This document shows positions 23,955-61,607 of a stretch of DNA of 64,000 nucleotides, piece after piece. Position numbers and translations under genes: made by a program. Origin of the DNA: Bacteroidota bacterium. Its GTDB lineage: Bacteria > Bacteroidota > Bacteroidia > Sphingobacteriales > Sphingobacteriaceae. Numbering within the stretch: the first letter of the stretch is position 1; the number at the start of each line of letters is the position of its first letter. Under the pieces are notes generated by a model. It was not told the DNA's origin. It saw only the letters and a list, made by a program, of their open reading frames with translations, and did not search any database. The stretch lies in contig JABDAU010000008.1 in the NCBI GenBank assembly GCA_013289045.1, forward strand, positions 1 through 64,000, written 5' to 3'.

Positions 23955-24035
23955 GGGCGTTGCCTTCGGCCCGGGCTTTTCAGGGCTGCGCTGCGCTCCG
24001 GCCCTGCGGGCTAAACCCTTACAATCCCTAACGCA
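23955..24035 (-). repeat. Family A element, copy 1 (inverted orientation)
   Basis: Read on the minus strand it begins GCGTTAGGGATTG and ends GGCAACGCCC, with a stem of the type CAGGGCCGGAGCGCAGC inside. It is close to identical in most of its length to copy A4 at 59663-59743. It faces copy A2, with element B1 between them. Confidence 0.8.
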
Positions 24036-24040
24036 ATTTT

Positions 24041-24132
24041 GTCTGAACCATGATTTACCTGATTAAAGGATGAAAGGATTTTACCTGCATAAATCAGGGT
24101 AATCTTTAACTCCTATGAATCATGGTTCAGAC
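24041..24132. repeat. Family B inverted repeat, copy 1
   Basis: The outer 15 bases of each arm (GTCTGAACCATGATT and complement) pair perfectly. It lies exactly between two head-to-head family A copies. Its right arm is nearly identical to the half element at 59612-59657. Confidence 0.8.
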
Positions 24133-24136
24133 AACC

Positions 24137-24220
24137 GCGTTAGGGATTGCAGCGGATACCGGCCTTAGCGCTTAAGGCCTGCAGGCGTATGAGCGGAAAG
24201 CCCGGCCGCAGGCAACGCCC
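24137..24220 (+). repeat. Family A element, copy 2
   Basis: It starts GCGTTAGGGATTG and ends GGCAACGCCC like the other copies, with a CGGATACCGGCC segment shared with copy A3. The inner part contains a palindromic GGCCTTAGCGCTTAAGGCC hairpin. Confidence 0.8.
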
Positions 24221-24446
24221 ATAACGCTTCGACAACACATCCCTGCCATCGCTCAAGGCTAAACGCGCCCCTCTCAAGAGGGGATCAAAAAAATTCTTCT
24301 TTAACGTTATCCCAAAACCATAATTCTTTACAACCAATAAATCATAAAAAAGTTATGGCGGTAAATATTTAATTTAGCAGCCTCAATAACATCTGCTGTT
24401 TACAGGCGTCTTTGAGGTGTTTAAGAACGAGAGGGAAATTATCATT
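24221..24446. other. Remainder of the amidohydrolase-mutL intergenic region
   Basis: After repeat A2 there is a CCCCTC/GAGGGG hairpin (24268-24283), then AT-rich DNA with a 23-bp motif (24345-24367) shared with the ctpA upstream region. No gene is seen. The mutL promoter is presumably here. Confidence 0.5.
24345..24367 (+). promoter_or_regulatory. 23-bp motif shared by mutL and ctpA upstream regions, copy 1
   Basis: The motif (beginning TAAAAAAGTTATG and ending CGGTAAATA) differs at one base from the copy at 59811-59833. Here it ends 79 bp before the mutL ATG; the other ends 67 bp before the ctpA ATG. Its role, promoter or repeat fragment, is not known. Confidence 0.5.
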
Positions 24447-32994: not shown

Positions 32995-33079
32995 TGAACC
33001 AGGATTAAACAGATTTATGTGATGTAAGATCAGATTTTTATATCCTGAAAATCTGTTTAATCCCCTCAAATCCTGGTTC
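32995..33079. repeat. Family B inverted repeat, copy 2, between convergent genes
   Basis: The outer arms (GAACCAGGATT and complement) and inner segments (AAACAGATTT / AAATCTGTTT) pair on both sides. It fills the whole interval between the stop codons of two convergent genes. It is closely related to copy B5 at 61493-61607. Confidence 0.8.
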
Positions 33080-45718: not shown

Positions 45719-45740
45719 TTGATATGCCGGGCTGCAGCTA

Positions 45741-45909
45741 AGATCCCCTCTCGAGAGGGGGTGTGCAGGAAAAGCGCGCAAATGCAGGGGTGTGTTTAAC
45801 AAAGCGACTAATACATGGTGCATAAACACACCCCTGCCACCGCACAGGGCTTACGCGCCCCCTCTGCGCCACCGCTAAAGCTAAGGCGGCACGCGGTCGA
45901 GAGGGGATC
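45741..45909. repeat. Family H repeat, copy 1 (169 bp)
   Basis: This unit is repeated without gaps at 46035-46203 with only a few substitutions. It contains a CCCCTCTCGAGAGGGG-type palindrome, a 15-bp perfect inverted repeat (45784-45798 with 45823-45837, core GCAGGGGTGTGTTTA) and a GCCACCGC...GCGG hairpin. A partial copy follows the isomerase gene. Confidence 0.85.
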
Positions 45910-45935
45910 CAAAAACCAGCGCATAGGCGCGCGTT

Positions 45936-45985
45936 CTCCCCCTAAACTTAGGGGGAGGTGTCGACCGCAGGGAGACGGAGGGGGT
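45936..45985. repeat. Family G double-hairpin element, in the array
   Basis: CTCCCCCTAAACTTAGGGGGAG is a strong hairpin, followed by a GTCGACCG segment and GGAGGGGGT. It lies between the two H copies. Confidence 0.55.
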
Positions 45986-46034
45986 AAAATGAAGCGACAG
46001 GTAATGAACTATGCCTGCGTTGAGAATGCAGCTT

Positions 46035-46203
46035 AGATCCCCTCTCGAGAGGGGGTGTGCAGGAAAAGCGCGCAAATGCAGGGGTGTGTTTAACAAAGCG
46101 ATAATCGCATGGTGCATAAACACACCCCTGCCACCGCACAGGGCTTACACGCCCCCTCTGCGCCACCGCTAAAGCTAAGGCGGCACGCGGTCGAGAGGGG
46201 ATC
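46035..46203. repeat. Family H repeat, copy 2 (169 bp)
   Basis: It is aligned to copy 1 without indels at a constant offset of 294 bp, differing at a handful of positions (for example in the loop before CATGGTG). Confidence 0.85.
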
Positions 46204-46236
46204 AAAAAAACGAGCGCCAGCGAAATGATGCAGCTA

Positions 46237-46308: not shown

Positions 46309-46439
46309 GCGTTAGGGATGGCAGCGGATACCGGCACTTCGAGGGCCTCAGTGTGACAAGCCGTGGCTAAGGCCTTGCGCAGTATGAGCGTACAGCCCGG
46401 GCCGCTTCGAGGGCTTCAGCGCGGGCTGCGGCAACGCCC
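46309..46439 (+). repeat. Family A element, copy 3 (extended)
   Basis: It starts GCGTTAGGGATGG and ends GGCAACGCCC, as in the other A copies, but is about 50 bp longer because of two additional hairpins, each with a TTCGAGGG(C/G) loop segment: CACT...AGTG and CGCT...AGCG. It abuts element B3. Confidence 0.75.
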
Positions 46440-46445
46440 AAAATC

Positions 46446-46559
46446 GTCTGAACTCGAATTTATAGAATTGAAGGAATTAATCGAATGGGGAAACTCTCTT
46501 GAGCCCTCCCCAAAAAGGGTTCTAAAAATTCATTCAATTCCAAAAATTCGAGTTCAGAC
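46446..46559. repeat. Family B inverted repeat, copy 3 (variant arms)
   Basis: The first 16 bases (GTCTGAACTCGAATTT) and their complement at the end pair perfectly. The arm differs from copies 1, 2 and 5 (CTCGAATT instead of CCATGATT or CCAGGATT), yet both arms have changed together. Confidence 0.8.
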
Positions 46560-59577: not shown

Positions 59578-59611
59578 TGGGTGATGGTTATGTTGGTGGA
59601 GTATTTAACAG

Positions 59612-59657
59612 TCAAAAATCAGGGTAATCTTTAAATCCTACAAATCATGGTTCAGAC
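59612..59657. repeat. Family B element, right half only
   Basis: The sequence AAATCATGGTTCAGAC and the preceding AAATCAGGGTAATCTTTAA agree with the right arm of B1 (24041-24132). The left arm is absent. A4 follows directly. Confidence 0.7.
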
Positions 59658-59662
59658 AAACC

Positions 59663-59743
59663 GCGTTAGGGATTGTAAGGGTTTAGCCCGCAGGGCCGGA
59701 GCGCAGTGTAGCCCTGGAAAGCCCGACCCGCAGGGAAACGCCC
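59663..59743 (+). repeat. Family A element, copy 4
   Basis: It starts GCGTTAGGGATTG and ends with AAACGCCC; most of its length matches copy A1 in reverse orientation. Confidence 0.8.
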
Positions 59744-59810: not shown

Positions 59811-59833
59811 TAAAAAAGTTATGACGGTAAATA
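59811..59833 (+). promoter_or_regulatory. 23-bp motif shared by ctpA and mutL upstream regions, copy 2
   Basis: It differs by one base from the copy at 24345-24367 and lies 67 bp before the ctpA ATG. Confidence 0.5.
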
Positions 59834-61493: not shown

Positions 61494-61607
61494 TCTGAAC
61501 CAGGATTAAACGGATTTATCGGATTTACAGGATATGGGAAATGGCCGTATATCAATCAAAACACCATCCTGAAAATCTGTTTAATCCCCCCAAATCCTGG
61601 TTCAGAC
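61493..61607. repeat. Family B inverted repeat, copy 5, stop codon to stop codon
   Basis: The outer 15 bases (GTCTGAACCAGGATT) pair perfectly with the other end. It starts on the last base of the ctpA stop and ends three bases before the der stop, as does B2 between its own convergent genes. Confidence 0.85.

What the first reader, a model, noticed from the sequence alone, without database searches (positions are those of the whole stretch)
23955..24220. Composite A-B-A element: two head-to-head A copies around a B palindrome
A1 (inverted), B1 and A2 lie side by side with few bases between. At 46.3-46.6 kb A3 is followed by B3, and at 59.6 kb a B half is followed by A4. So A (begins GCGTTAGGGAT, ends AACGCCC) and B (begins GTCTGAAC) recur as neighbours. 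The A copies differ in length but keep ends and internal stems. This may be one mobile or RNA-coding composite unit. I know of no published name and cannot exclude one.
Basis: partly seen in the sequence, partly recalled or inferred. Interest (0 to 1): 0.6.

Follow-up and report, generated by a model that had tools for sequence, protein, structure and literature searches.

The report
Flavo-1-like repeat beside hairpin repeat
The odd A-B-A block is a lineage-specific pile-up of two kinds of short folding repeats between genes; one of them is an unrecognised relative of a predicted bacterial RNA called Flavo-1, whose pattern of change fits a DNA repeat at least as well as an RNA.

Summary
The A-B-A block is real: A1 23955-24034 (minus), B 24039-24134, A2 24137-24220 (plus). 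In this draft genome (genus Mucilaginibacter, inferred) A-B adjacency is far above chance. 30 of 51 intact A copies carry a B arm at their 5' end, and all 6 close A pairs are head-to-head. It is not an obligatory unit: in related genomes A usually stands without B. In a sister-species pair, five intergenic slots hold A and/or B in one genome and a GTCATYGCGAGG-type repeat in the other.

A is related to Rfam RF01705, Flavo-1, a predicted RNA of unknown function. The window copy scores 19.9 bits (cut-off 42), but its outer helices align. Same-shell copies in another family score 57-60 bits, and a model built from A recovers 11 of 20 Flavo-1 loci. The shell helix covaries strongly, with no excess of G.T over A.C.

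Linkage to Y1/RAYT genes was not found for A (1 of 32 loci, over 1 kb off).

Best reading: a divergent, interior-swapped Flavo-1 relative amplified with B as mosaic REP-like repeats. How it spreads is not shown.

The parts
23955..24034 (-). A1, Flavo-1-like element, interior type II (AAGGGTTTAGCCC...)
   Evidence: sequence; model R1 46.7 bits
24039..24134 (.). B1, palindrome TTGTCTGAACCATGATT...AATCATGGTTCAGACAA
   Evidence: inverted repeat I5; RNA fold of 24038-24135 z -7.27
24137..24220 (+). A2, Flavo-1-like element, interior type I (GCGGATACCGGCC...)
   Evidence: model R1 100.3 bits; RF01705 19.9 bits, below its 42-bit cut-off
46309..46439 (+). A3, Flavo-1-like element with enlarged inner hairpins
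   Evidence: sequence; model R1 56.9 bits
46446..46559 (.). B3, palindrome of the TCGAATT variant, at the 3' side of A3
   Evidence: inverted repeat I3; B-arm hits
59600..59659 (.). right half of a B (CATGATT variant) next to A4
   Evidence: direct repeat D4 with 24075-24134
59663..59743 (+). A4, Flavo-1-like element, interior type II
   Evidence: model R1 40.2 bits
61493..61607 (.). solo B of the CAGGATT variant, no A beside it
   Evidence: B-arm hits at both ends

Best explanation
A is a divergent subfamily of the Flavo-1 superfamily: an outer shell (P1 GCGTT/AACGC, P2 GGGATN/N'AGCCC plus an inner GC/GC and ATAC/GTAT helix, and a 3' hairpin before AACGCCC) in which the inner hairpin of canonical Flavo-1 is replaced by lineage-specific domains. 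B is a separate long palindromic intergenic repeat. A-B-A is a local, lineage-specific composite in which A copies flank B with their 5' ends, amplified together in this genome. It behaves like a mosaic of REP/BIME-type repeats: non-autonomous, folded as hairpins in single-stranded DNA, with neighbours exchanged at fixed intergenic slots. Shown: anatomy, covariation, kinship of A to Flavo-1, recurrence of the junction, exchange of neighbours between sister species. Inferred: that selection acts on the DNA fold, that copies spread as DNA, and by which enzyme.
For: Fold: 11 shell pairs in 66 copies, 98.6% standard pairs against 90.4% in shuffles, covariation score 0.215 against 0.061, 0 of 500 shuffles as high, slid versions at most 0.036. 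Repeat behaviour: about 50 copies in 3.75 Mb; B arm at 30 of 51; 6 of 6 close pairs head-to-head; 34 of 37 junction stretches confirmed. Exchange: L261/L276, L255/L275, L256/L344, L244/L343, L259/L342. Strand-neutral change: in 197 copies 17 G.T against 21 A.C cells. Literature passage: in F. psychrophilum Flavo-1 hits lie 'indistinctly' sense or antisense to transcripts (PMC9723704).
Against: Window copies are below the Rfam cut-off, and 7 of 7 Mucilaginibacter loci given to one search had no Flavo-1 match at E <= 5. Single A copies do not fold better than shuffles (7 copies, z -1.43 to +1.40), and their minimum-energy fold is often not the covarying one. In tandem gene contexts A is sense to the genes 46 times and antisense 16 (p 1.8e-4; own genome alone 17 to 9), which an RNA role would predict. 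No clean empty site and no target duplication was found; only truncation, tandem duplication and neighbour exchange. 'Further pair types' did not exceed shuffles (197 of 500). The copies are related by descent, so shuffles overstate significance.
Confidence: 0.72

Rival explanations
1. A is a true structured RNA (cis element or small RNA) that has become highly repeated; the fold is kept for an RNA function.
For: Kinship with RF01705, listed in PMC2864571 as a probable RNA (table passage); sense orientation bias 46 to 16 in tandem contexts; strong covariation.
Against: No excess of G.T over A.C (17 against 21); head-to-head A pairs; copies in three viral contigs; sense/antisense indifference reported for F. 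psychrophilum.
Confidence: 0.3
2. A-B-A is one non-autonomous transposon (MITE-like) with A plus B arm as long terminal inverted repeats, mobilised by a transposase in trans; half units are decay products.
For: Constant 110-115 bp spacing in 4 of 6 pairs; subtype specificity of B (CATGATT arms 23 of 26 within 300 nt of an A); at C13:55297-55853 the same arms enclose about 385 nt of other repeats.
Against: Two of six pairs enclose a different B variant; no target duplication; the C36 pair 1.6 kb apart encloses an ordinary phosphoribosyltransferase-like gene and no transposase (naming by eye); A and B stand apart in other genomes and B is swapped alone beside a conserved A.
Confidence: 0.15
3. 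A and B are REPs of an IS200/IS605-type Y1 (RAYT) transposase, and A-B-A is a BIME.
For: Short, intergenic, palindromic, head-to-head dimers; Y1_Tnp genes exist in the genome (3 matches); L207 has a degenerate B about 310 bp from a Y1 gene and L198 a B-like arm about 0.9 kb off.
Against: The three own Y1 genes have other repeats around them. A near Y1 genes: 1 of 32 loci, more than 1 kb away. Neither A nor B begins with GT[AG]G.
Confidence: 0.12
4. Chance neighbours in crowded intergenic regions.
For: Many repeat families share these regions; with sites confined to 12% of the genome, 6 or more close pairs arise in about 15% of draws.
Against: 30 of 51 A copies with a B arm on one side only, one orientation, constant spacing; junction recurs in other species.
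Confidence: 0.02

Closest known systems
Flavo-1 RNA (Rfam RF01705; Weinberg et al. 2010, PMC2864571)
   Same: Outer helices and conserved GGAT.GNARYGGA...GCGGAAAGC.. core; taxon (Bacteroidetes); position between genes. Reciprocal model matches.
   Different: Inner hairpin replaced; an extra closing helix GCGTT/AACGC and a 3' hairpin lie outside the Rfam model; window copies score under the cut-off (19.9 against 42).
REP / BIME elements with RAYT transposases (passages of PMC6006769)
   Same: Short repeated intergenic hairpins, dimers head-to-head, mosaics with other repeats.
   Different: A is a branched 80-130 nt fold, no GT[AG]G foot, no RAYT linkage found for A.
CGTC-tagged REPs (PMC3733652, section 6 and passages)
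   Same: Palindromic intergenic repeats, mostly head-to-head dimers, no dedicated transposase, heterodimers frequent; GTCATTGCGAGG repeats that replace B or A in the sister genome resemble this class (my reading of the tag, no consensus compared).
   Different: CGTC repeats have 8-9 bp stems and 4-5 nt loops; B has about 33-nt arms, A a multi-helix fold.
GTAG-15 dimers nested in long palindromes in Anabaena variabilis (passage of PMC3733652)
   Same: Repeats of one family nested in or beside a longer palindrome of another family.
   Different: There the REP dimer sits inside the palindrome; here A copies flank B from outside.

Membership tests
Flavo-1 (RF01705) | score at or above the 42-bit gathering cut-off | tested here: not met
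   window A2 19.9 bits; A1 not matched; whole window 0 matches at gathering
Flavo-1 (RF01705) | outer helices of the model with conserved core | tested here: met
   alignment of window 24125-24211 to the model; reciprocal model search 11 of 20 Flavo-1 loci
Flavo-1 (RF01705) | inner CCUUUU..AAAAG hairpin of the model | tested here: not met
   replaced by CCGGCC..GGCC (type I, 36 of 51), AAGGGTTTAG (type II, 13 of 51) or another domain (2 of 51)
Flavo-1 (RF01705) | expressed as RNA | not testable with these tools
REP/BIME with RAYT | GT[AG]G foot beside the hairpin | tested here: not met
   A begins GCGTTAGGGAT, B TTGTCTGAAC
REP/BIME with RAYT | copies flank a Y1 transposase gene | tested here: not met
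   A in 1 of 32 Y1 loci, over 1 kb off; B-like arms in 2 of 32; one locus per relative only, own genome 63.5% complete
MITE | terminal inverted repeats with target-site duplication | tested here: inconclusive
   A pairs are inverted at the ends, but no duplication was seen by eye and no empty site was found
CGTC-tagged REP | CGTC or TGTC tag, 8-9 bp stem, 4-5 nt loop | tested here: not met
   B carries TGTC at its foot but has about 33-nt arms

The most novel reading that the evidence does not exclude
Flavo-1, catalogued for years as a small RNA, is at least in part not an RNA family but a large superfamily of structured DNA repeats of Bacteroidia: its fold is kept in single-stranded DNA, its inner domain is exchangeable, it joins lineage-specific palindromes into composites, and it turns over at fixed intergenic slots where unrelated palindromes replace each other.
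Probability: 0.4. Interest if true: 0.68.

Novelty: new variant of a known kind. Interest (0 to 1): 0.5.

Why it matters
Flavo-1 is named in only a handful of the papers held (3 for 'Flavo-1', 4 for RF01705), and the passages I saw give no function. The A family ties it to highly repeated, branched elements with one conserved shell and interchangeable interiors, and shows that they partner with palindromes and exchange neighbours. That makes a testable alternative to the small-RNA reading and may explain why Flavo-1 hits were reported on either strand of transcripts. If right, annotation pipelines that call these loci ncRNA genes would be labelling DNA repeats.

Tried and rejected
Rfam at gathering threshold on the window: nothing; the Flavo-1 link appeared only through other-family loci and E-value mode. 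RAYT/REP reading: Y1 genes found, but with other repeats. Transposon-end reading: the C36 pair (L166) encloses no transposase. Integron attC likeness of GCGTTAG/CTAACGC: considered from memory only, set aside because A itself is the folded unit. Plasmid records: no match. Viral contigs: 3 with A; the A-B junction pattern gave 3 stretches that look coding and lack a convincing A (best 16.0 bits, E 0.079), so chance. Minimum-energy folding of single A copies: uninformative. Hairpin next to A: upstream 87 nt z < -2 in 28% of 162 copies, downstream 16%, window background 8%, but the G031 set shows the reverse (6% and 24%), so no general rule is claimed. First orientation count was redone with stricter sets. 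Sequence-string and topic searches of papers found no named match in the listings.

Full report
Observation. The block is as described. Reading 5'->3' on the plus strand: A1 inverted (23955-24034), B palindrome (24039-24134), A2 (24137-24220). A3-B3 lies at 46309-46559 and half-B-A4 at 59600-59743. A model of A finds exactly these four A copies in the window at E <= 1.

Source. The window is contig C8 of a 3.75 Mb draft in 172 contigs, 63.5% complete.

Genome-wide. There are 59 exact A 5'-end hits against 1 control hit and 53 B-arm hits against 0. Five A hits were dropped as coding chance hits. By motif, the 5' neighbours of 51 intact A copies are: B arm 30, D-type repeat 5, CGTC-type 5, other 10, contig edge 1 (on re-reading, one 'other', L086, also looks CGTC-type and the edge copy looks D-type). 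Six A pairs lie within 600 bp, all head-to-head; five of the six pair an interior type I with a type II. CATGATT-type B arms are tied to A (16 of 26 within 40 nt, 23 of 26 within 300 nt), CAGGATT-type arms are not (0 and 1 of 14).

Not an obligatory unit. In 41 genus genomes the junction pattern occurs in 8 (14 in this genome, 17 in the other seven), while a type-I A 24-mer occurs in 21 (26 here, 128 in the other twenty). The two patterns are not the same sieve, so the ratio is rough, but genomes such as G006 (23 A, 0 junctions) and G017 (14, 0) are clear. Of 34 A copies readable in stretches of G006, G017 and G026, by eye 3 have a B-like arm, 7 a D-like and 8 a GTCATTGC-like repeat at the 5' side. 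In 84,980 species' contigs the junction pattern gave 37 stretches; model R1 confirms an A there in 34, the exceptions being two Solirubrobacter records and L132.

What A is. RNAalifold on 66 type-I copies gave a shell helix with many compensatory changes. For 11 named pairs, 98.6% of 726 cells pair; 6 pairs have changes on both sides; the covariation score is 0.215 against 0.061 +/- 0.007 in shuffles; one measure, further pair types, is not above shuffles. In a looser count over 197 copies of all interior types there are 882 Watson-Crick cells, 17 G.T, 21 A.C and 65 others. An A.G mismatch is conserved between the shell pairs. The window gave no Rfam match at gathering. In E-value mode, same-shell copies of genome G143 (another family of the class, unnamed) match Flavo-1 at 57-60 bits, those of G166 at 36.5 and 29.4; seven Mucilaginibacter loci in the same call did not match. 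Given a 401-nt stretch, A2 matches Flavo-1 at 19.9 bits, E 0.096. In the genus, RF01705 is over its cut-off in 12 of 41 genomes and in none of 14 control genomes (6 of the 14 ring at E <= 10); this genome has one copy at 42.0 bits, and an intact A copy (C43:16293-16363) scores 33.5. Conversely, model R1 finds 22 matches in 30 loci: all 10 phage-contig and other-family loci, and 12 of 20 genus Flavo-1 loci, 11 of them at the Flavo-1 position. The 9 others are mostly of a type closed by CCCGAT/GCGGG (by eye). The closing helix itself varies with its partner between types: GCGTT/AACGC, GCATT/AATGC, CTGTC/GACAG (by eye). So A is a relative of Flavo-1 with a swapped interior; by Rfam's threshold the window copies are not members.

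What B is. B1 folds far better than its shuffles (z -7.27) and the whole A-B-A as DNA likewise (z -9.57). The inner arm sequence differs between B variants while the ends GTCTGAAY..RTTCAGAC stay; in 30 distinct palindromes several inner positions keep complementarity through changes, others do not. B occurs in three further viral-collection records. No name for B was found.

Sister species. G031 and G013 are about 95% identical in the compared stretches. Of 20 G031 stretches, 13 matched a fetched G013 stretch; most keep the A. Differences seen: truncation inside an A (L247/L268), an extra A by duplication (L253/L265, L258/L278), and exchange of neighbours. In L261/L276 the A is shared but its 5' neighbour is B in one and a GTCATTGCGAGG palindrome in the other, with a common flank right after. 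In L255/L275 the 3' neighbour is B plus a second A in one and such a palindrome in the other. For three more G031 A loci whose partners were looked up, the G013 slot holds a GTCATTGCGAGG palindrome or, at L259/L342, a single GTCATCGCGAGG arm instead of A or A+B. No clean empty site was found, so insertion as such is not shown.

Strand and context. In tandem gene contexts A is sense 46, antisense 16 (p 1.8e-4); divergent 38, convergent 23 (crude ORF calling, copies related). This speaks for an RNA role or for a strand-biased way of spreading; the base-pair statistics speak for strand-neutral selection. Both are reported; I weigh them slightly to the DNA side, helped by the passage in PMC9723704 that Flavo-1 hits lie indistinctly sense or antisense.

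Transposase. Three Y1_Tnp matches in the genome lie among other repeats. In 29 relatives' loci, one per genome, plus the three own, A appears once, over 1 kb from the gene, and B-like arms twice (L207 about 310 bp, L198 about 0.9 kb). With a 63.5% complete genome a missing enzyme cannot be excluded.

Viral contigs. Three IMG/VR contigs carry A. PHROGs matches near them include a terminase large subunit (E 5.5e-6, L223), a Holliday junction resolvase (L221) and repressors (L222). This is compatible with horizontal carriage.

Literature. Seen as passages only: PMC6006769, PMC2864571, PMC9723704, PMC9029176; PMC3733652 passages and section 6 (49, 67, 68). Everything else from search listings. No paper naming A-B composites appeared in searches.

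Noticed in passing
L166 1636-1930 (C36 of the same genome): About 0.3 kb insert with ends ACTGTTGTCCGGTAA/TTACCGGACAACAGT and an apparent 11-bp duplication GAACTCGTTTC, sitting inside a CGTC-type palindrome: looks like a MITE.
   Followed up: no
window 24345-24367 and 59811-59833: A 23-nt motif TAAAAAAGTTATGRCGGTAAATA occurs twice in the window, each time shortly after the 3' end of an A (D20).
   Followed up: no
window 45733-46209: A 183-nt direct duplication (96%) of a CCCCTCTCGAGAGGGG repeat just before A3; related pieces at 24231 and 47458.
   Followed up: no
L031 1-265: Y1 transposase gene preceded by five GTGTTCC-type palindromes; looks like a REPtron with its own repeat family.
   Followed up: partly
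L303, L304, L307, L308, L313 (genome G017): A sits inside a different, larger repeated composite with GTCATTGCGAG arms, so other species build other composites around A.
   Followed up: partly
window 32995-33079: Another B-like inverted repeat of the CAGGATT variant, partly matching 61496-61603 (D8, D13, I13).
   Followed up: no
L010 1149-1540: B arms enclose about 385 nt of nested CGTC-type repeats between two A copies.
   Followed up: partly
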